The position numbers were made by a program, and so were the translations under genes. Below are positions 42 to 11,594 of a stretch of DNA of 12,531 nt, one piece after another (within the stretch, counting starts at the first letter, position 1; every line of letters begins with the position of its first letter). The notes beneath the pieces were generated by a model. That model was not told the origin of the DNA, ran no database searches, and saw only the letters and a program-made list of their open reading frames with translations. Source of the stretch: Thermoplasmata archaeon (GTDB taxonomy: Archaea; Thermoplasmatota; Thermoplasmata; Thermoplasmatales; Thermoplasmataceae); NCBI GenBank assembly GCA_021827885.1, contig JAKAUD010000042.1, positions 1 to 12,531 on the forward strand. Reading direction: 5' to 3'.

Positions 42-122
42 GCGGGGATGGCCCAGCGGTACGGCGGCAGCCTGCTAAGCTGTTTCTCTATGAGAGCGAG
101 GGTTCGAATCCCTCTCCCCGCG
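42..122 (+). tRNA. tRNA-Ser (anticodon GCT)
   Basis: Class II tRNA decoding AGC/AGU serine codons. The acceptor stem GCGGGGA (42-48) pairs with TCCCCGC (115-121), with discriminator G122 as expected for serine. The D stem is GCC/GGC at 51-53/63-65. The anticodon stem 67-71/79-83 encloses loop CTGCTAA with anticodon GCT at 74-76. A long variable arm (TCTC/GAGA) lies at about 85-95. The T stem GAGGG/CCCTC (98-102/110-114) holds the loop TTCGAAT. No CCA is encoded. The 3' half is overlapped antisense by the integrase reading frame, so this gene is the likely integration target and its 3' end was presumably restored by the element. Confidence 0.96.
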
Positions 123-1088
123 CTTAGTATTATACAACCCGCAACGAATTCGAACCCTGTTCATTTCTTCACGGGTCCGAAAAAAACTGTTCCATTGTGA
201 AAGTACCTCATTTGACGCCTCCTCACTCGTCACATGCGTGTAAATCTGCGTGGATGCTATACTTTTATGACCAAGGAGCACCTGTATCTTGCGGGTATCC
301 AGTCCATGCCCGCGCACCCCTCCCTTCAGGAGTGTCGTGGCGAACCAGTGCCTCAGGGCATGGGGTGAGACCATCCCGGCTTTTCCGCGGATGGCGGATT
401 CCTTTATCCTCCTGCGCACGTAATCGGGCGAAGGCCTTTTCACAACGATCCCGCCATCCACGACGTGCTCTGCTACGAAGAGTGCCGGATCATTCGGCGC
501 CCTGGGTCGGTGCTTCTCGACGTATTCCGTGATCTCTGAATGCATCTGCGCGGAAAGCGGAACGTACCTGTCATCCTCCCTCTTAGAACTCCTGACCAGC
601 AGCCTCCCCTCCTCAAGATCGGAGAGATTGATTTTTGATATCTCCGACACGCGGAGACCGCAGTATGCCGCAAGCTTCACCCAGATTGTATTCCTGAGCC
701 TGATGCTCTCGTTCGCGTATAGCCTTGCCCCCTTCAGCACTTTCTGCACCTCCTCATCCGTGGGGATGTACCTTGGCCTCGGCTTCCCGGCAGGGATGGT
801 CGGCACGCCGACAGGGGAGTCCATGAACCTGCAGAACGCCCTGAACCCGTTCAGGTGGTTCTGCACGGTCTTGTCCCTGCTCTGCCCTGACCTGGAATCT
901 ATGAATTCAAAAACTTGATCCTCCGTGAAGTCCAGCGGGTCAAGGAAGGCCGAGATGAACTTCACGCTCCTCACCATTCTCTTCACGGTCTCCGAAGAAT
1001 ATCTGGGTTTTGTGCTTCTCCTGAGCCACTTCACGAACTCAGGAAGCTTCTCGGCAAGACCGGGTTCTATTTCCCTGGCGGGACTCAT
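75..1088 (-). CDS. Tyrosine recombinase / integrase (XerA-like)
   Basis: Site-specific recombinase that would integrate and excise the element at the adjacent tRNA-Ser gene. With the start at 1088 the protein is 337 aa: an N-terminal SAM-like core-binding domain (about 10-95) and a C-terminal catalytic domain (about 105-305). All catalytic positions are visible: R146 in CGLRVSE, K169 in SSKRE, H243 and R246 in HALRH, H274 in LGHKS, and nucleophile Y283 in TQIYTHV. The start at 1088 is preferred over an in-frame ATG at 1121 because it makes an ATGA overlap with the upstream gene and follows GGAAGGCGG. A typical recombinase would end about 25-30 residues after the tyrosine; the extra tail, including RDSNPRS, is translated antisense through the junction and tRNA T-arm. 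It is the last gene of the 2712-75 operon. Confidence 0.93.
   Translation of the reverse strand: MSPAREIEPGLAEKLPEFVKWLRRSTKPRYSSETVKRMVRSVKFISAFLDPLDFTEDQVFEFIDSRSGQSRDKTVQNHLNGFRAFCRFMDSPVGVPTIPAGKPRPRYIPTDEEVQKVLKGARLYANESIRLRNTIWVKLAAYCGLRVSEISKINLSDLEEGRLLVRSSKREDDRYVPLSAQMHSEITEYVEKHRPRAPNDPALFVAEHVVDGGIVVKRPSPDYVRRRIKESAIRGKAGMVSPHALRHWFATTLLKGGVRGHGLDTRKIQVLLGHKSIASTQIYTHVTSEEASNEVLSQWNSFFRTREEMNRVRIRCGLYNTKRGERDSNPRSHRETA
78..122. other. Probable attachment site (tRNA 3' half, element-chromosome junction)
   Basis: Archaeal tyrosine recombinases commonly integrate into the 3' half of tRNA genes, with the integrase gene lying just inside the element. Here the integrase frame enters the tRNA antisense and stops at TAG opposite 75-77 in the anticodon loop. 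The exact crossover cannot be placed from one end. No second copy of the T-arm/acceptor sequence in direct orientation was seen in this window, so the partner site lies outside it or has been lost. An inverted copy of the T-arm core AGGGTTCGAAT lies at 148-158 (copy at 99-109). Confidence 0.5.
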
Positions 1089-2002
1089 GCTGTGAGCACC
1101 GCCTTCCTTTTCTTCAGCCATGCCTGGAAATCGGCGTCGGCTTCTGAATCAAGCCATATAATGTTCTGCAGTATGGTGTTAGCCTCCGGCACGGTCGTGG
1201 GGTTAAGAACGAACTTGCCGTCCTTCAGCTTCACCTTGGCATTGAAGAGCGGTTCTTTCTGGCCATAATACTCAACAAACAGAGGGCCGTATTTCTTCAT
1301 TTTTCCCTCGAGCCCCTCCATGATCCGGTCCCTCTGCTTTGCGGACATCTCTCTCTCCTCGCTGCCGCTGCTCTTCTGCCCGGCATTTCCAGCCGGCTGG
1401 CTGCGGTGTGAGTTTTCTATGTCCGGTGGCACTTCCCCGTCGATAACGTCGTACATATCCTCGGCATCCTGCGTGAAAATTCTTGATGCACCGGTGGCAC
1501 GCAATATCATGTCCACGTATGCGCGCTTGATGGCCATCTTCAGGATCGTGTTGTCGATCCATGCAACCATGTTTATCATGGACACCTTATCGCCCTTCTG
1601 GCGCATCTTGTCCATCTGTGTGATCATGCTCTTCATGTACTTCGGGTCAAGGGACGAGCAATAGCCTTCACCATCCGAGATCTTCTCTCCCCTGCCGTTG
1701 AAGCCTGAAACCCTTATGGTATAGGACACGTACGGGTTCTCCCCGGTGAGCTGCCTGTCGCATGTCTTCTCCGATATCTCGTCCCGTATGTTGAAATACT
1801 TGGACAGCAGCTCTGCCCCCGGCTTGTAACACGACGGCTTGTTTCCGCCCGGCAGCACACCGTAGTCGACGCCCCTGACCATTATGGCCTTGAATATGTG
1901 CGTCAGCGCATTTCCCGCCTTTCCCAGCTCGTTCCACTCCGACGGAACGTCGAACGGCATCATGGCCATGCTCTCCCTTCTTTCCACCTGTTCACTCATC
2001 AT
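1085..2002 (-). CDS. Phage-type recombination / single-strand-annealing-like protein
   Basis: Protein of 305 aa. The start at 2002 is chosen because GGAGGG sits 8 nt upstream; an in-frame ATG at 1999 directly follows. Residues 45-70 carry a VDYGVLPGG stretch followed by KPGAELLSKYFNI, and residues 155-180 carry KMAIKRAYVDMILRATGAS and then FTQDAED. I recall these two blocks (YG-I-PG..KP-L-KPGAE-L and KMA-KRA-VDA-L..T-ASD-FTQD) from uncharacterised phage and integrative-element proteins often grouped with annealing recombinases; that functional link is from memory and not proven here. A polar linker (about 189-217) rich in S, G, Q and E separates a basic C-terminal domain. It lies directly upstream of the integrase with an ATGA overlap, which fits a recombination role in the element. 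Confidence 0.55.
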   Translation of the reverse strand: MMSEQVERRESMAMMPFDVPSEWNELGKAGNALTHIFKAIMVRGVDYGVLPGGNKPSCYKPGAELLSKYFNIRDEISEKTCDRQLTGENPYVSYTIRVSGFNGRGEKISDGEGYCSSLDPKYMKSMITQMDKMRQKGDKVSMINMVAWIDNTILKMAIKRAYVDMILRATGASRIFTQDAEDMYDVIDGEVPPDIENSHRSQPAGNAGQKSSGSEEREMSAKQRDRIMEGLEGKMKKYGPLFVEYYGQKEPLFNAKVKLKDGKFVLNPTTVPEANTILQNIIWLDSEADADFQAWLKKRKAVLTA

Positions 2003-2120
2003 TTTCTTTTCCCTCCTTGCAAAAAGCGGCGGAATCCGGCCGCTCCAACTCCTCAATTCCCGTGGCACCATCTGAAATGCCGGATCCCCGCGTGTTCCCA
2101 AAAATTCCGTTCAGCTTCAT
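1992..2120 (-). CDS. Small 42-aa protein linked by overlaps at both ends
   Basis: The frame starts at an ATG (2120-2118) that forms an ATGA overlap with the stop of the upstream coiled-coil gene. It ends at TGA (1994-1992), 11 nt inside the start of the downstream annealing-like gene. It begins MKLNGIFGNTRG and ends CKEGKENDE. It is acidic at the C-terminus and shows no membrane segment or known motif. Its support is positional: it exactly fills the only gap in an otherwise fully overlapping operon, and its last codons contain the ribosome site of the next gene. It may be a true protein or a coupling leader that delivers ribosomes to the annealing-like gene. Confidence 0.5.
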   Translation of the reverse strand: MKLNGIFGNTRGSGISDGATGIEELERPDSAAFCKEGKENDE

Positions 2121-3004: not shown

Positions 3005-3388
3005 TCAATCCTCCCTCCATATCCACGTATCTCTGACACTGGTATCTTCCAACAGCTCTGAAACGGCTTCATCATTGAAGAAGCACTTCGCCTGGAATGC
3101 CATCTCATTCAGAACTCGTGAAAGGCACACGCCACGGTCCCCGGTGAAAGAAACCCTGACAGTCCCGATGCCATTGGCATATGACCATTCAAAACGGTCG
3201 TCGGGGAACCTTGACTTCTGTCGGTCTGCCTGTGTCTTTCCAATCTCGTTGAACCTTGTCTCGCTTGTCAGGAACTCCTCTTCATATTCTACGCTTGTTT
3301 TTTCCTCCGTTCCGCTAATCCGGAACATGAAGTGATCGGGTACTGCATGCATCTCCTCGTCATATTTTCGTACCCTTGCCATTCTCAT
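3005..3388 (-). CDS. 127-aa protein coupled to an RHH regulator, unknown
   Basis: Translation starts at an ATG (3388) inside an ATGA overlap with the RHH stop, preceded by AAAGGAGGT, an almost perfect ribosome site six bases upstream, so strong coupled expression is expected. The chain is acidic and soluble. It has a basic N-terminus (MRMARVRKYDEEM), a probable beta-strand-rich middle (FEWSYANGIGTVRVSF), a helix with a cysteine (VLNEMAFQAKCFF) and an acidic end with tryptophans (DTWIWRED). It carries no recognisable RelE, PIN, MazF or HEPN motif. The arrangement of small DNA-binding protein followed by a coupled small protein is that of antitoxin-toxin pairs, but the function is open. It could also be a co-repressor or partner of the RHH protein. 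Confidence 0.75.
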   Translation of the reverse strand: MRMARVRKYDEEMHAVPDHFMFRISGTEEKTSVEYEEEFLTSETRFNEIGKTQADRQKSRFPDDRFEWSYANGIGTVRVSFTGDRGVCLSRVLNEMAFQAKCFFNDEAVSELLEDTSVRDTWIWRED

Positions 3389-3543
3389 GCCTGTACCTCC
3401 TTTATTTTCGATAACTGCTGCACTTTTTCGCGGACAGCCTCTATGATAAACTCACTGCGGTTCCTATATCCCATATCGCTGGTAGAAATCGCTTTCTCTA
3501 CTTTCAGGACAAGATCATGGGGCACCTTTATTGTATCATACAT
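3385..3543 (-). CDS. Ribbon-helix-helix (CopG/Arc-type) regulator, upstream copy
   Basis: A small dimeric DNA-binding protein of about 52 aa. The strand TIKVPHDLVLKVEKAI is followed by helix A and the helix-turn-helix pair YRNRSEFIIEAVREKVQQL, the hallmark of the RHH fold in which the N-terminal strand inserts into the DNA major groove. The ATG at 3543 is preferred because GGAGA lies 7 nt upstream and the family begins right at the strand; an in-frame ATG at 3570 would add nine residues. It is the first gene of a two-gene operon with the 127-aa protein (ATGA overlap) and lies divergent to a close paralogue at 3661. The shared intergenic region holds repeated ATTAC half-sites, so autoregulation is likely. 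Confidence 0.88.
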   Translation of the reverse strand: MYDTIKVPHDLVLKVEKAISTSDMGYRNRSEFIIEAVREKVQQLSKIKEVQA

Positions 3544-3568
3544 CTTTCTTTCTCCATCGGTGTTATAC

Positions 3569-3648
3569 ATTACTAATCAATTACTCCTATTAAATGGTTG
3601 TTATGTATTACATCTGTATTACTCCCAATCGTTAATTTCGATGTAATA
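3569..3648. promoter_or_regulatory. Divergent promoter region with phased ATTAC half-sites (probable RHH operator)
   Basis: ATTAC occurs at 3569, 3580, 3607 and 3618, and inverted at 3643-3647. The first two and the second two are each spaced exactly 11 bp, one DNA turn, so they face the same side. TATTACATC (3606-3614) and GATGTAATA (3640-3648) form a perfect 9-bp inverted repeat. ATTACTCC is repeated at 3580 and 3618. A TATA-like ATTTAATA for the minus strand (3588-3595) lies between the two pairs, and TTAATTTC near 3632 could serve the plus strand. Tandem half-sites at one-turn spacing are typical for RHH repressors; binding is inferred. Confidence 0.6.
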
Positions 3649-3660
3649 TAATTGCCATCC

Positions 3661-3834
3661 ATGGCAACGTCATACACGACGGTAAAGATCCCTGACCAGT
3701 TGCTTGAGAAGATAGAGGAAATAATTCGCGAGCACCCTGAATATGCATACCGCAATCGCTCCGAGTTCATCATTGAGGCGATACGGGAGAAGATACGTAC
3801 CCTGGAGGATCGAAAAAAATCCCAGAATCCATGA
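3661..3834 (+). CDS. Ribbon-helix-helix (CopG/Arc-type) regulator, divergent copy
   Basis: A 57-aa RHH protein starting at the ATG at 3661; an in-frame TTG at 3652 is less likely. The strand TTVKIPDQLLEKIEEII is followed by YRNRSEFIIEAIREKIRTL, then a short basic tail. It shares the core YRNRSEFIIEA(V/I)REK(V/I) with the divergent RHH protein at 3385-3543, so the two arose by duplication or from a common family and may bind the same sites or form heterodimers. Unlike its paralogue it has no coupled downstream gene: its 3' end faces the VapB-like gene on the other strand. Confidence 0.88.
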   Translation: MATSYTTVKIPDQLLEKIEEIIREHPEYAYRNRSEFIIEAIREKIRTLEDRKKSQNP

Positions 3835-5417: not shown

Positions 5418-5427
5418 TTTATATAAA
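5418..5427 (+). promoter_or_regulatory. TATA box upstream of the helical-protein/PIN-like operon
   Basis: TTTATATAAA is a near-ideal archaeal TATA box in a gene-free 132-bp gap. Transcription would start near 5450, giving a leader of about 45-50 nt before the ATG at 5497. Inside that leader a 12-codon frame (ATG at 5466, MNALNVRNDIDV) ends at 5504, overlapping the main start by 8 nt, so it may act as an upstream coupling frame. Nothing else was found in the gap. Confidence 0.55.
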
Positions 5428-5496
5428 GCATATGATTAATTAATAGCTAATTACAATAATATTGAATGAATGCACTAAATGTGCGGAATGATATAG

Positions 5497-6210
5497 ATGT
5501 TTGAACAAATCAAATCATTAGGGCCTGATTCCATGCTTGTAAAGGAACTAAAAAAGAATTCCGTGAATATGTTTAACAGGATACCGGAAAGTAGTGTAGA
5601 TAGAAGCAGAGCAAAATTATACGGACGATACCAAAAGATTATGAAAGAACAAATTCTTTCTAGGTCAGACGACTTTATAGACGCTCTTACCGATTTTGTG
5701 AAGGATTACCCAAGTGAAAAAGAGATAAAGAGGGTGGAAGATCTATTTCAGGAAGTACTCAAGATCAAAATTAACGAAAGTGGGGCGGAAGAAGAAAAAG
5801 AAGGAGTTAGTTTAGCAGAAAGAATTGCACACTTAGAAGCTACTATCCCACTGAACGAAAGAAACATAGTATATAGGGAAGAACTTAAAGACTTAAAGAA
5901 AACAATGGAAAAAGTAATAAAAGAACTGGTTGCGATTAATTGGGCAGAAGTTAGCGAGGAGGACTCAGAACGTCTTTACTCTTTTTCAGAAGTAATTTCA
6001 ACCTCGAATGCTATCATAGATTCATTGTTGTCTGAATTATCTATAAACAGTAACAAGGATGTGAAGCAAGGAATGTCTGTGTTGCTTTATCTTGTTCTTC
6101 GTGCAAATGCGTATCTGCTGAGTAAAATTACACACGATTCACTTTCATGGACAATATCAGTAGTTCAAGCCTATGCATATGCAAATGTTACTTACCTAAT
6201 TGCAAACTGA
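5497..6210 (+). CDS. Alpha-helical protein paired with a PIN-like nuclease, unknown
   Basis: A 237-aa protein, almost wholly helical by sequence. A charged central section (about 100-145, including ERNIVYREELKDLKKTMEKV) is a likely coiled-coil. The C-terminal third (MSVLLYLVLRANAYLLSKI, then ISVVQAYAYANVTYLIAN) is more hydrophobic and could pack on a partner or membrane, though it carries polar residues and is not a clear transmembrane helix. No catalytic motif is visible. It lies 8 nt ahead of the PIN-like gene on the same strand. The size is larger than usual VapB antitoxins, so if it is the neutralising partner it is of a new kind. It is AT-rich like the following restriction genes. Confidence 0.75.
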   Translation: MFEQIKSLGPDSMLVKELKKNSVNMFNRIPESSVDRSRAKLYGRYQKIMKEQILSRSDDFIDALTDFVKDYPSEKEIKRVEDLFQEVLKIKINESGAEEEKEGVSLAERIAHLEATIPLNERNIVYREELKDLKKTMEKVIKELVAINWAEVSEEDSERLYSFSEVISTSNAIIDSLLSELSINSNKDVKQGMSVLLYLVLRANAYLLSKITHDSLSWTISVVQAYAYANVTYLIAN

Positions 6211-6218
6211 GGTGTAAA

Positions 6219-6950
6219 ATGTCTATCTTTTTCCCAGATACATCAACCCTGATGTCACTATTTGACAAAACAGACCCGCTCCATAATAGAGCAAGAGATA
6301 TTTTGCGCCAGTACAAAATAAAGGATGTTTTTATGCCAGGCACTGTTCTAACCGAATGGCAGAGCATGGCGATGAGGGAACACAAAAAACTGGTTGGGAA
6401 TACAATTAGACTTATGGATTCCAAAAGAAGTGAAGGAGTTTCAACCTTGACCGTCAGAGATTTCAACGTGTTGGTTGATTCTGCGGCCACCGAAATCCGA
6501 GGTAAAGGTAAGATTGAGGGAAGAAAATTAGATCAGGCACGGAGTAACTTACAAAGAGAAATTGAAAGTACCTTCAGGACAAAATCAGGTAAAACCATTA
6601 CGAGCCGTCCAATTGATGATTTGAAGGAATACATAATTCGTCTCAACTATGCTTTTTATGAGAAGAGCATGGGTGTAATTGGTTTCTTCATTCAGCATGG
6701 CTATAGCCATCCGGACATAAAAGAAGACGTTGAAAGGGCAGTGAAACTGTTCATGTCGGAACACAGAATTGACTTGGAAACACAAGATTCTATGATTTTA
6801 GGGGATTTGTTGAGATATGCCGCCGCCGATTCAGAAGATTATGACTTTGTTGTTGGAGATAAGACCTTTTTTAAAAAGGGGCAAGAATACATTAAGTTAT
6901 ACAATGGTGTAATTTCGCGGGTTTCATTCAAACTACTCGCGGCATCATAA
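6219..6950 (+). CDS. PIN-like nuclease with a large internal insertion
   Basis: A 243-aa protein starting at the ATG at 6219, which follows GAGGTGTAAA; in-frame upstream codons to 6147 lie inside the preceding gene and are not used. The acidic residues of a PIN active site are present in order: D7 in FFPDTSTL, E46 in TVLTEWQ, D190 in ETQDSMILGDLLRYA, and D214 in VVGDKTFF. Between E46 and D190 lie about 140 residues, far more than in standard VapC toxins (about 130 aa in total), forming a helical, basic insertion. PIN domains cut single-stranded RNA with metal ions. It is the second gene of a unit with the helical protein at 5497. A toxin or defence effector role is inferred; an RNA-processing enzyme is the alternative. 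Confidence 0.72.
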   Translation: MSIFFPDTSTLMSLFDKTDPLHNRARDILRQYKIKDVFMPGTVLTEWQSMAMREHKKLVGNTIRLMDSKRSEGVSTLTVRDFNVLVDSAATEIRGKGKIEGRKLDQARSNLQREIESTFRTKSGKTITSRPIDDLKEYIIRLNYAFYEKSMGVIGFFIQHGYSHPDIKEDVERAVKLFMSEHRIDLETQDSMILGDLLRYAAADSEDYDFVVGDKTFFKKGQEYIKLYNGVISRVSFKLLAAS

Positions 6951-7172: not shown

Positions 7173-7331
7173 TCAGTCCATTTTCTTCACGAATACCCTG
7201 CCGTCTTCCTGGTAAAAGCCAATTATATCTCCGGCATTTGCTTTCAGTGCTTCGGCCGCTTTCTTTGGGAGTGTTATCCTGAGCGATGATTCCCTTTTGG
7301 ATATATGTGATACTTCAAGCAGTTGTGGCAT
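7173..7331 (-). CDS. AbrB/SpoVT-type DNA-binding protein (52 aa)
   Basis: A small swapped-hairpin AbrB protein: MPQLLEVSHISKRESSLRIT followed by LPKKAAEALKANAGDII and GFYQEDGRVFVKKMD. The central S-LRITLPK-A-ALKA-AGD-I pattern and the closing strand are the family signature. Such proteins act as dimeric transition-state regulators or as antitoxins. It lies 58 nt downstream of the nuclease gene of the restriction operon, on the same strand. It appears to have its own promoter: AT-rich sequence at 7346-7359 is about 22-25 bp from the ATG. A tandem TTGTGG(C/T)ATT(A/T)AG repeat overlaps its start codon, which suggests autoregulation. No partner toxin follows. Confidence 0.82.
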   Translation of the reverse strand: MPQLLEVSHISKRESSLRITLPKKAAEALKANAGDIIGFYQEDGRVFVKKMD

Positions 7332-7389: not shown

Positions 7390-7731
7390 TCATACTTCTC
7401 TCAAGGTATATTTGATTCCTCTTTTCTTGCACCATTCCATGGCAGCCTGGCTTTTACTTCTTGTTATAGGATTATTGATAAGATGCCCCCCCTTAATCTC
7501 TACGATCTCCTGTTCTCCACTGCTGTATTCAATAAGAAAATCAGGGGTGTAATGAGCCAGCTTTCCGTCAAGATTGAAGTATGGTATTCTTATCCCATGA
7601 TTCTTAGTCCACTTAACCACATTGTCTGATTTCTCTAGGAAATCCATAAATTCTTTCTCCTTATCGCTATCACAGTACTCCAAAGAATATGCGCTCTTCT
7701 TTGGATTTGGATATACGCTACTGTTCGCCAT
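7390..7731 (-). CDS. PD-(D/E)XK nuclease subunit of the Type III-like restriction system (separate gene)
   Basis: A 113-aa protein that matches the C-terminal endonuclease domain normally fused to Type III Res helicases. It begins with SAYSLEYCDSDKEKEFMDFL, followed by VVKWTKNHGIRIPYF and HYTPDFLIEY. The core catalytic residues are D64 in TPDF and E78-x-K80 in VEIKGG, and the closing helix is KSQAAMEWCKKRGI. Its ATG at 7731 lies one base after the Res stop (TAA A ATG), so translation is surely coupled. It would make the double-strand cut directed by the Res motor. TnsA-like nucleases share the D...ExK layout and are the alternative label, but the neighbours favour restriction. Whether the split is natural or from a frameshift cannot be told from one sequence. 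Confidence 0.82.
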   Translation of the reverse strand: MANSSVYPNPKKSAYSLEYCDSDKEKEFMDFLEKSDNVVKWTKNHGIRIPYFNLDGKLAHYTPDFLIEYSSGEQEIVEIKGGHLINNPITRSKSQAAMEWCKKRGIKYTLREV

Positions 7732-7732
7732 T

Positions 7733-9763
7733 TTAGTTCACCGTCCCTGAAAATATGCCTTTTAAAATCCCCTTGGTAAAATTCTTCCTTATTTCAGGAA
7801 TGCATTTGATTATATTTTCAAGTTCAGCCTCTGACCCCTCTGACAAAGTCTTATTTCCCAGGAATTTAAGGCTTATGTGATCCATCATCACATTATACAG
7901 ACGCTCCTGTTTTGTGATATCATAAGCATTCTCTTCTATCATTGTCTTTACCAACAGCACAATTTCGTCCCTTACATCATCGATTGTAAAACTGTACTTG
8001 GTTGAGCTTGTGAAAAGTTCTCCCTTTCCCTTGTCCTCAACTTCAGTGCCAAATTTTTTACCCACGCTCTTTCTGCGTATTCTTTCCATCATCACTGCTG
8101 TAATTTCTATGGCCTCATCAGTTTCATATTTGACAGCATTGAGCTTTTCTCTCCAGTCCTTTACAGTATCCTCATCTCTCAATTTAGATCTTATGACCGC
8201 CAACTTAGTTTGAAAACTAGAATCAACCACGGGCTGTTTTATCATTATAAGTTTGTCTGGGTTCACAAGCTTCTGAATGAATTGTCTGCGTTCCGGGATC
8301 TCTTCTTCCCCTATTTCTGTGTTCGGCAGTACATCTTGCCTTATCCTGCTAACATTCATCATCTTCCAGAGCCAGTTATGATCCAATTTTGGATGATCTA
8401 CAACAAGCAATATCTCAGGGTCAGAGCTACCCTTTCTTATCTTTCTTAGCCCCCTACCTATTATCTGTTGACCAAACACAGGAGAGGATATCTTCCTTAA
8501 CAGTAGGATTACAGAAACTTCCGCAACGTCCCACCCTTCTCTGAGCATGAAAACACTTACCACTGCTTCATAGGGGCTATCAATTGAACCGATTCTCTTT
8601 GCCTCCTCCCTTTCACTATCACCTGATTCTTCAGTTACCAAGAGTGTTTTAAGATGAAATTCACTTTCCAGGAATTCCTTTGCCCTCCGGGCTTCGTCAA
8701 TTCCCATAGTTACTACAAAAAGTAGCGGTTTGTATTTTTCGTTTGCTTCTTTCTTTTTCTGTGATATAGCATTAATTGAAATAGAAAGAAGCATCTTCAT
8801 CGGTGCCGGGTCCATTATCCACTGGAATGGTTTCACTCGTTTTTCATACAGCTCCATTTCCTCAGGGGTAAAGTCTGAAATCTTTCTCTTCTCTCTGGTC
8901 TTTGTATTTGTGTAAGTCAGTTCAACGATTCTTGATTCAGGTTGCAGCACTACTATATTTTTGATAACAGGTTTTGGTGAATCCATGGCGGAAGTTATGT
9001 CAAAACTGTAGATCATTTTGGAATCGGGATAACTGCCGTCCGCTCTCTCGGGAGTTGCAGTTGTGTCAAGTCGAATCATGGTCTGGTCTCTAAGAATACT
9101 TAAAACCCTGGAAAATTGCTCTGCAACGCTATTGTGAGCTTCATCATTGAATATTGCAATATTGCCAATTTTGGTCTTTATAAAATCCAGGTTTCTTGCC
9201 GTATTTGAACCAGTGTCATAGAGTTCTTGAATGTTGGTTATTATTATGTCAGCGGATATCATATATTGTGGGTTACCACCACTCTCAAGAACCGTAGCGC
9301 CAATCATATTGTTGAGGCTTCTATCTGGGGTAAGTGACCACTTCTCAAACACTGTTGTATTATTATTGTCTGCTGACCTGATAAAGTCAGTTGCGAGTCT
9401 GTCCTTGACTATCAGATTTGGGCAAATAATTATGAACTTTTCAAACACTGCTTGATAGGTGTACTTCAACCACGCTATTACTGACGCAATGATAAGACTC
9501 TTTCCCCCACCTGTAACTATCCTTAGGAGATATTTCGCCCCTAGATTGTTTCTCTTTATCTCATATGAAAAGATTACCCTCAAAATGGCCTCCTTCTGGT
9601 GCTGCCAGAGCTGTAAACCATCTTTTCTGTGAAGCAGATGTTCGATGAACTCCATTGTTTCTGATCTTGAACCCGGATATCCACCCATAACCCAATTTTT
9701 AAAATCTTCCTCAAAACTCGAAAAGGAATCGGGCATTGTTGAATATTTTTGCAACTCAATCAA
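7733..9763 (-). CDS. res: Type III-like restriction subunit Res, SF2 helicase/ATPase without its nuclease domain
   Basis: A 676-aa superfamily 2 motor: Walker A TGGGKS (84-89), DEAH box in FNDEAHN (207-210), motif III TTATP (234-238), motif V REGWDV (408-413) and motif VI QQIIGRGLR (432-440). The arginine finger and the unusual TGGGKS loop are as in Res/COG3587-type enzymes. Full-length Res proteins are usually about 900-1000 aa with a C-terminal PD-(D/E)XK domain; this chain stops after a helical C-terminal region, and the nuclease is the next gene. It overlaps the Mod stop by 8 nt, with a TTG start at 9763; TTG at 9754 and ATG at 9736 are alternatives. It uses ATP to translocate or switch along DNA from unmethylated sites. 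Confidence 0.9.
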   Translation of the reverse strand: MIELQKYSTMPDSFSSFEEDFKNWVMGGYPGSRSETMEFIEHLLHRKDGLQLWQHQKEAILRVIFSYEIKRNNLGAKYLLRIVTGGGKSLIIASVIAWLKYTYQAVFEKFIIICPNLIVKDRLATDFIRSADNNNTTVFEKWSLTPDRSLNNMIGATVLESGGNPQYMISADIIITNIQELYDTGSNTARNLDFIKTKIGNIAIFNDEAHNSVAEQFSRVLSILRDQTMIRLDTTATPERADGSYPDSKMIYSFDITSAMDSPKPVIKNIVVLQPESRIVELTYTNTKTREKRKISDFTPEEMELYEKRVKPFQWIMDPAPMKMLLSISINAISQKKKEANEKYKPLLFVVTMGIDEARRAKEFLESEFHLKTLLVTEESGDSEREEAKRIGSIDSPYEAVVSVFMLREGWDVAEVSVILLLRKISSPVFGQQIIGRGLRKIRKGSSDPEILLVVDHPKLDHNWLWKMMNVSRIRQDVLPNTEIGEEEIPERRQFIQKLVNPDKLIMIKQPVVDSSFQTKLAVIRSKLRDEDTVKDWREKLNAVKYETDEAIEITAVMMERIRRKSVGKKFGTEVEDKGKGELFTSSTKYSFTIDDVRDEIVLLVKTMIEENAYDITKQERLYNVMMDHISLKFLGNKTLSEGSEAELENIIKCIPEIRKNFTKGILKGIFSGTVN

Positions 9764-11594
9764 CCTCTAAATCTATCACATGCAGAGCTTCGCCACCCTG
9801 GTCATCTTCTACTTTAAAAGCAATTTTTGTCTTTCCTGAGCCTTCTAATTCGGCAGATAACGCCATTTTCCTATCTCCCTTTGTTCTGTTTCCTAGGATT
9901 GCAAAACCTGTCGTTGGAATGAAAACTCCATCAAAACTAAAATCCGCCTGTACGTTCACTATCTTTCCACCATTAAGCGAAACAGATTCGGAGAAATCGA
10001 ACTCATAAGTTCTATATCCCATTTTCCTTACCCTAAGCCTCACAACTGGTGGCATAATGAATCTCAAGAAGTTTGCATAATTCTCATTCTTTTCCACTAT
10101 GTGTTGCTTGAATTTGTCAGAACCTATAGGAACAAGATCTATATTTACAAATTCAATACCTGCACCAAGTCTAGCCAACATTTCCTGGGCCTGTTTTGCC
10201 TTTTCAGAGAACTGCCATCCTATCATTATTCCTTTTTTTCGGTTCTCATAATTCTTTTCTAAATATTCAGCAAAGTTAAGAACAGCGTCTTCATTCACTA
10301 GAATCTCGTGGTTCTTGGACCCGATCCAAATGGGGATTCCCTGTTTCAGTCCAGCGATTGTCTGATCGGCCACCTTCCTTCCGCCAAAAGCATTGAGAAT
10401 AAAGTCTTTAAAGTCATCATCAGTAAGCTTCGAAAGCGAGAATATGTCGAGATCGGAACACGACAATAACTCTATGTTAGGGGAGAAGGATATTTCTGTG
10501 TTTTCTTTTATGGTCTTTAAAATTCTCCCTTTTGAAATTTCTACAGCAATCCTTGATATGTCTGAAACAATCCATCTCCTTTTTAGTTTTTGTGCAACTG
10601 CAGCCGTAGTACCACCGCCACTGAAGAAGTCTGCTACTATATCACCTTCATTTGAGCTTGCCTCTATTATTCTTTCTAGTAATGCTTCAGGCTTCTGTGT
10701 AGGGTAGCCTAATTTTTCATTGGAAATTCCTTGAATAAATGGAATCTCGAATACTTCGGAAGGTCTTCCCTCTTTCATATAAGCCATTCTAACAGTTCCA
10801 TTTTTATTGTTGTATATTTTGAACCGCTTACCATCCTTATCTATCTTGTCATACCTATTAATTGCTTTTTCATCGTAATCTACCAATATTGCGCTCTGGT
10901 CAAAATAATAATCATCAGACCTTGTATAGAACAAAATTGTATCATGCTTCCGCGGATAGTTTCTCGAAGTGCTTGACGGCCCAAAATATTTCCATATTAT
11001 CTCATTTCTAAAATTATCATATCCAAATATCTTATCCATTTCTACTTTAACATAATGTGAGGCATGCCAGTCCAGATGAACGTATATCGATCCTGTTTTT
11101 TTCAGCAGTCTCTTCATTTCAATTAATCTTGCATCGAGCCAGATTAGATATGTAGGCATCCCGCCGTCCCAAATATCCGTAAAGGAACGGACCTCATTTT
11201 CGTCTCCGAATATAACATTATAGTTTCTTCCAGAGAAGAATGGGGGATCGATGTAAATTAGGTCTATGGATTCAGAAGGCAGCATCCTCATTATATGCAA
11301 ATTGTCACCCCAGTAGATCTTGTTAGTAAAATCATAATTACCATCAAATTTGATCTCCTCAACTTTCTGAAAAGGCAGTTTAACATATGGAAATTCTTCA
11401 GAATATCCCTTTCCTTTCTTATAGCCCTTGGGAAGTTCATCTACCGGGACGGTCCCAAACCTTTTTGGGATTTTATAAAATTGAGGTTGTTGCGCAATTT
11501 CAATTGTTGGTTTTATGACCTCTTCAGATACAGTGAATTCGTCAAATTCGCTTAGCTTACTCAAGTTTGAATCTTCTTCATCTTTTGTTGTCAC
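9756..11594 (-). CDS. mod: Type III-like DNA adenine/cytosine-N4 methyltransferase Mod (beta class)
   Basis: A 612-aa protein that methylates the recognition site and gives the complex its specificity. The motifs are in beta-class order: catalytic motif IV DPPF (116-119, in DLIYIDPPFFSGRNYN), a target-recognition section (about 200-290), motif X GYPTQKP (296-302) and SAM-binding motif I DFFSGGGTTAAVA (322-334). IWDGGMPTYLIWLDARLIEM and TGSIYVHLDWHASHY are typical of the COG2189 Mod group. After the catalytic core about 230 residues follow (380-612) that include KVADQTIAGLKQGIPIWIGS and a likely beta-rich end; their role, perhaps binding Res, is unknown. The start is GTG at 11594. A TATA-like box 28 bp upstream points to a leaderless transcript. 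It is the first gene of the operon Mod-Res-nuclease. Confidence 0.92.
   Translation of the reverse strand: MTTKDEEDSNLSKLSEFDEFTVSEEVIKPTIEIAQQPQFYKIPKRFGTVPVDELPKGYKKGKGYSEEFPYVKLPFQKVEEIKFDGNYDFTNKIYWGDNLHIMRMLPSESIDLIYIDPPFFSGRNYNVIFGDENEVRSFTDIWDGGMPTYLIWLDARLIEMKRLLKKTGSIYVHLDWHASHYVKVEMDKIFGYDNFRNEIIWKYFGPSSTSRNYPRKHDTILFYTRSDDYYFDQSAILVDYDEKAINRYDKIDKDGKRFKIYNNKNGTVRMAYMKEGRPSEVFEIPFIQGISNEKLGYPTQKPEALLERIIEASSNEGDIVADFFSGGGTTAAVAQKLKRRWIVSDISRIAVEISKGRILKTIKENTEISFSPNIELLSCSDLDIFSLSKLTDDDFKDFILNAFGGRKVADQTIAGLKQGIPIWIGSKNHEILVNEDAVLNFAEYLEKNYENRKKGIMIGWQFSEKAKQAQEMLARLGAGIEFVNIDLVPIGSDKFKQHIVEKNENYANFLRFIMPPVVRLRVRKMGYRTYEFDFSESVSLNGGKIVNVQADFSFDGVFIPTTGFAILGNRTKGDRKMALSAELEGSGKTKIAFKVEDDQGGEALHVIDLEVD

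What the first reader, a model, noticed from the sequence alone, without database searches (positions are those of the whole stretch)
5497..6950. Helical protein plus PIN-like nuclease with a 140-residue insertion next to restriction genes
All four PIN acidic positions are present, but the domain is split by a large insertion, and the partner is an unrecognised 237-aa helical protein with a hydrophobic C-terminus. It sits beside a restriction-modification operon, the usual place for new defence systems. This is the strongest candidate for an undescribed defence or toxin-antitoxin system here.
Basis: partly seen in the sequence, partly recalled or inferred. Interest (0 to 1): 0.7.

Follow-up and report, generated by a model that had tools for sequence, protein, structure and literature searches.

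The report
Archaeal nuclease with helical partner gene
Two neighbouring genes in an acid-loving archaeon encode a predicted nucleic-acid-cutting PIN protein with an unusual helical insert and an unknown helical partner; the two travel together between genomes and most likely form a toxin-antitoxin or virus-defence pair of a new variety.

The parts
5418..5428 (+). TATA-box-like element (TTTATATAAAG) upstream of the pair
   Evidence: TTTATA at about the same place in 5 of 5 aligned upstream regions (window, L001-L004); the archaeal promoter reading is general knowledge
5497..6210 (+). helical partner gene, 237 aa, acidic (net charge -7)
   Evidence: homologues; AlphaFold model pLDDT 77.7, helices only; charge
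6209..6214 (+). GAGGTG ribosome-binding-like motif overlapping the helical gene's stop codon, 4 nt before the PIN start
   Evidence: sequences printed; GAGG(T/C)G in 5 of 7 pairs, altered in L001 and L022
6219..6950 (+). PIN-domain nuclease gene, 243 aa, split PIN core
6237..6239 (+). codon of predicted catalytic Asp7
   Evidence: invariant
6354..6356 (+). codon of predicted catalytic Glu46
   Evidence: invariant
6357..6698 (+). region carrying the long helices that split the PIN fold (residues 47-160; net charge +7 against -4 for the rest, window's copy only)
   Evidence: helices 41-71, 79-94, 101-117, 132-160; charge
6786..6788 (+). codon of predicted catalytic Asp190
   Evidence: invariant
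6858..6860 (+). codon of predicted catalytic Asp214
   Evidence: invariant
42..123 (+). tRNA-Ser(gct), overlapping the integrase 3' end: likely attachment site of an integrated element (context)
   Evidence: the attachment-site reading is inference
75..1121 (-). XerA-like tyrosine recombinase/integrase (context)
   Evidence: PF00589 1.6e-28, recomb_XerA_Arch 1.4e-36 below its cut-off, phrog_1 3.9e-37
7390..11594 (-). type III-like restriction-modification genes: TnsA-like nuclease, Res helicase, Mod methylase (context)

Best explanation
A mobile two-gene toxin-antitoxin-like (abortive-infection-type) module. Shown: two co-inherited, adjacent genes under purifying selection, the second a PIN-fold protein with the complete acidic site, the first an acidic protein predicted to be all helical. 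Inferred: the helical protein is made first, docks on the basic helical insert of the PIN protein and keeps it inactive; when it is lost or displaced (virus infection, loss of the element, stress), the PIN protein cuts RNA, probably tRNA or rRNA as known VapC toxins do (recalled), and arrests the cell.
For: PIN fold and four invariant acids; Pfam PIN in 10 of 20 A1 and 10 of 13 A5 members, above cut-off in P0053. Helical gene directly upstream in 7 of 7 pairs, gap 7-10 nt in six and 1 or 13 nt in L004 depending on the start codon. Of 400 genomes of the class, 6 with both, 1 helical only, 0 found with a full PIN relative only. The helical-only genome G348 has no PIN relative on that contig (best tblastn E 1.2) and none by profile A1 in the genome; a lone antitoxin is harmless while a lone toxin is not. 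Mirror-tree r 0.885 over 9 pairs, 2 of 5000 permutations as high. Helical partner acidic in 19 of 20 near-full-length rows; in the window the PIN insert region is basic. Sporadic: full PIN match in 5 of 117 genomes of one order and 1 of 106 of another. Changing neighbours, among them mobile-element, TA and restriction genes.
Against: The partner is far larger than usual VapC antitoxins and has no DNA-binding domain above a Pfam or NCBIfam cut-off; weak sub-threshold matches do exist (TetR in 4 of 21 members, best 0.019; phage-integrase SAM-like in P0054, 20.1 of 22.3 bits), so self-repression is not evident but not excluded. Neither window protein has a PADLOC match at E up to 1; four unrelated models each match one of 20 PIN members. 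Three of 8 loci show no mobile, TA or defence gene (L002, L004, L022, by eye). No background rate of defence neighbours was measured. PIN net charge itself varies from -2 to +5. Binding was not modelled. One helical-only genome is a weak basis for asymmetry.
Confidence: 0.5

Rival explanations
1. Sensor-effector defence complex: the helical protein is not an inhibitor but an obligate activating or substrate-recruiting subunit of the PIN nuclease, which acts only on invader nucleic acid.
For: The partner is large, predicted all helical and carries no antitoxin-type DNA-binding domain above cut-off; strict co-inheritance fits an obligate complex; AbiE, PDC-S01 and restriction genes near some copies.
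Against: One genome keeps the helical gene without a detected PIN gene, and the PIN protein carries a full active site of its own.
Confidence: 0.22
2. A non-conflict RNA-processing or element-maintenance pair, for example an RNase used by integrated elements or plasmids, or a housekeeping nuclease kept by a few lineages.
For: No mobile or defence gene seen beside the copies in L002, L004 and L022; integrase in the window and a D5-like primase in L003.
Against: Present in few genomes of each order, not found in the phage, plasmid and IMG/VR collections at the sensitivity used, and no neighbour shared by the loci read.
Confidence: 0.15
3. The pair belongs to the adjacent type III restriction-modification genes as an accessory module.
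For: Only 439 nt separate the PIN stop from the end of the restriction genes.
Against: Opposite strand; the operon was seen in none of the other 7 loci in the stretch held (ORF lists judged by eye, unequal flanks; L020 only positions 3000-14000 and ORFs of 120 aa or more).
Confidence: 0.03

Closest known systems
VapBC type II toxin-antitoxin (Shigella VapC 5ecw/5ecd/5ed0, M. tuberculosis VapBC11 6a7v; FitAB 2h1c/2bsq)
   Same: PIN fold with four acids; two adjacent genes, partner first (gene order of VapBC recalled)
   Different: 243 aa with inserted helices instead of chains of 132-143 residues; partner 221-257 aa, predicted all helical, no DNA-binding domain above cut-off
PIN-associated antitoxin families of Makarova et al. 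2009 (DUF433, COG2886, DUF104/AbrB, COG1753/RHH, MerR-like; PMC2701414, section 9 read, passages)
   Same: unexpected partners found next to PIN genes, many in archaea
   Different: those described there carry HTH, AbrB, RHH or MerR-like domains, none of which was matched above cut-off here; the same paper says no TA systems were identified in Thermoplasmatales at that time
PDC-S70, archaeal PIN candidate defence gene (PMC12988326, passages seen)
   Same: PIN nuclease proposed as archaeal defence
   Different: described as a single-gene system; the PIN family here gave no PDC match in PADLOC-DB 2.0.0, but I did not verify that this version holds the S70 model
BREX BrxC helical domain (PF25792)
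   Same: weak match of residues 36-93 of the helical protein; 17 of 21 members, best E 1.4e-4
   Different: below the gathering score in the window's protein (15 of 27 bits); 11 of 18 rows match in the alignment holding the two distant members, of which P0054 does not

Membership tests
PIN-domain superfamily | Asp after strand 1, Glu in a helix, Asp at a later helix start, Asp after the next strand | tested here: met
   D7 after strand 2-6, E46 in helix 41-71, D190 in helix 188-203, D214 after strand 207-212; invariant; distances between the side chains were not measured (no coordinates at hand)
PIN-domain superfamily | PIN fold | tested here: met
PIN-domain superfamily | Pfam PIN profile match | tested here: met
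   not the window's own protein, but 10 of 20 A1 members, best 3.2e-6; P0053 27.8 bits against cut-off 23.6
VapBC toxin-antitoxin | two adjacent genes, partner (antitoxin) first | tested here: met
   7 of 7 pairs
VapBC toxin-antitoxin | small antitoxin with a DNA-binding domain (RHH, AbrB, HTH, PHD) | tested here: not met
   221-257 aa, no such domain above cut-off in Pfam for any member shown or in NCBIfam for the window's copy; predicted all helical; sub-threshold TetR and SAM-like matches noted
VapBC toxin-antitoxin | operon self-repression through an operator | tested here: inconclusive
   5 upstream regions aligned; only a TATA-like element is clearly shared
VapBC toxin-antitoxin | toxicity of the nuclease and neutralisation by the partner | not testable with these tools
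   needs expression experiments
PDC-S70 candidate defence | match to its profile | tested here: inconclusive
   no PDC match, but presence of the S70 model in the library was not verified
GINS replication factor (considered for the helical protein) | sequence similarity held across the family | tested here: not met
   single-sequence match to 7yil_A, E 0.0013, absent with the family profile at E up to 5 and with distant members P0054 and P0050

The most novel reading that the evidence does not exclude
A new class of PIN conflict system in Thermoplasmata: a large helical inhibitor-sensor docks on a basic helical insert grown into the PIN nuclease, replacing the DNA-binding antitoxin tail of VapBC, and releases the nuclease on infection.
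Probability: 0.4. Interest if true: 0.62.

Novelty: new variant of a known kind. Interest (0 to 1): 0.45.

Why it matters
A 2009 survey found no TA systems in Thermoplasmatales (PMC2701414, passage seen). A 2026 survey reports low CRISPR-Cas prevalence in Thermoplasmatota, which keep restriction systems, AbiE, CBASS and others, and also that one Thermoplasmata genome holds 71 defence systems, the archaeal maximum (PMC12988326, passages seen), so these archaea are not poor in defence as such. A small recurrent PIN pair with an unannotated partner, unmatched by PADLOC models, is a directly testable addition, and the insert suggests a different way of controlling a PIN nuclease.

Full report
Observation. 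The window holds a 237-aa ORF (5497-6210) and, 8 nt later, a 243-aa ORF (6219-6950). The protein search gave 19 relatives of the second and 20 of the first, and 29 for the first with a profile, of which only the 7996 best candidates were scored. The two hits whose source names an organism are Thermoplasmataceae MAGs, and the 4 loci found in GTDB genomes are Thermoplasmata MAGs. Synonymous change exceeds non-synonymous change about 4.5-fold between the window and L001 for both genes, so both are translated.

The partner. The first protein is modelled as helices only (pLDDT 77.7, pTM 0.78), is acidic in 19 of 20 near-full-length rows, has no transmembrane-like segment, and has no Pfam, NCBIfam, PADLOC, PHROG or PDB relative that survives checking. 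A GINS resemblance was tested and dropped.

Do they belong together? Yes. In all 7 pairs read (window, L001-L004, L020, L022) the helical gene lies directly upstream on the same strand; the gap is 7-10 nt in six, and in L004 13 nt to the homologous position or 1 nt to the GTG start; a GAGG(T/C)G motif overlaps the stop codon in 5 of 7. Two of these pairs are only about 25-29% identical to the window, so the partnership is old. In 400 genomes of the class the helical profile found 7 full members and one partial match. Six of the seven also hold the PIN gene: five by profile A1, and G141 by profiles A3 and A5 only. A1 and A3 also gave one partial PIN match each, G258 and G428, left out. The wider PIN profiles were run on 389 phylum genomes and 106 of one order, not on the same 400, so a distant PIN-only genome could be missed. 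Four of the six genomes (G001-G004) had first been found through the PIN gene. Fisher P is 1.3e-12, without correction for kinship or that ascertainment. Distances of the two proteins correlate across 9 pairs (r 0.885; 2 of 5000 permutations reach it); 8 of those pairs were matched by identical longest-contig length in the protein tables, an inference. The helical-only genome, G348, has a helical gene with a C-terminal extension and no PIN relative by profile A1 or on the contig.

Surroundings. In the window the pair lies between a tRNA-Ser-overlapping integrase with its neighbours and type III-like restriction genes. L020: AbiEi/AbiEii about 1.1 kb away and PDC-S01 about 4 kb away. L021 (helical only): a ParE-like toxin about 0.5 kb away, and a protein with sub-threshold restriction-nuclease matches farther off. 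L003: a D5-like primase, and a protein with DarG (8.9e-6) and PDC-M19A (7e-11) matches about 1.5 kb away. L001: an IS200-type transposase. L002, L004 and L022 lie among what look by eye like ordinary metabolic or membrane-protein genes; the HTH-CBS gene beside the L022 pair matches generic HTH models and is not counted. So 4 of 8 loci have a TA, defence or candidate-defence neighbour in the stretch held. Flanks differ in length, only chosen ORFs were scanned with PADLOC (7 of the window, the pair included; 9 of L003 and L020-L022), flanks of L001, L002 and L004 were not, and there is no background control. The distribution is sporadic: full PIN matches in 5 of 117 genomes of one order, plus one partial, and 1 of 106 in another.

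Mechanism. Best supported is a toxin-antitoxin-like module: the helical protein, translated first, binds and restrains the PIN nuclease, plausibly through the basic insert; loss or displacement of the partner frees an RNase. Steps shown: pairing, order, PIN fold (predicted), intact site, charge contrast, helical-only survival (one case). Steps inferred: binding, inhibition, RNA target, trigger, antiviral benefit. The main rival is a sensor-effector complex in which the partner activates the nuclease.

Known or new. The fold and the two-gene logic are those of VapBC and FitAB; the partner fails the DNA-binding antitoxin feature, so I do not file it as VapBC. PIN-linked antitoxins in PMC2701414 section 9 (read) are HTH, AbrB, RHH or MerR types. 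Four library searches (15 of 82, 10 of 15, 1 of 1 and 15 of 35 papers listed) showed no paper that I recognised from title or abstract as describing this pair. Three papers were opened, two of them by passages only and one by passages and one section; most subscription journals are not held. I rate it a new variant of a known kind, of moderate interest.

Noticed in passing
window 7390-9763 (-): The type III-like restriction subunit looks split: a 676-aa Res helicase (PF04851) and a separate 113-aa TnsA-like nuclease (PF08722, 6.3e-13; RE_endonuc 3.4e-4 below cut-off), whereas the matched NCBIfam and PADLOC restriction models span both parts in one protein.
   Followed up: no
window 42-1121: tRNA-Ser(gct) overlaps the 3' end of a XerA-like integrase on the other strand, suggesting an element integrated at the tRNA gene; no second attachment site was found in the window.
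   Followed up: partly
window 1085-2101 (-): Protein beside the integrase matches phrog_10048 (6.8e-30), a viral family of unknown function, and no Pfam family.
   Followed up: no
window 7173-7331 (-): Short reading frame (52 codons) that by eye resembles an AbrB-type swapped-hairpin regulator between the PIN gene and the restriction genes.
   Followed up: no
window 3385-3834: Two small divergent ORFs, 61 and 60 aa, that by eye resemble ribbon-helix-helix regulators.
   Followed up: no
L021 6307-7799 (-): A helical gene without its PIN partner, about 0.5 kb from a ParE-like toxin; its C-terminus runs past the position where most others stop.
   Followed up: partly
L003 10055-11464: Two proteins without PADLOC match (the 385-aa one also without Pfam match) downstream of a protein with a DarG/PDC-M19A-like region.
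   Followed up: no
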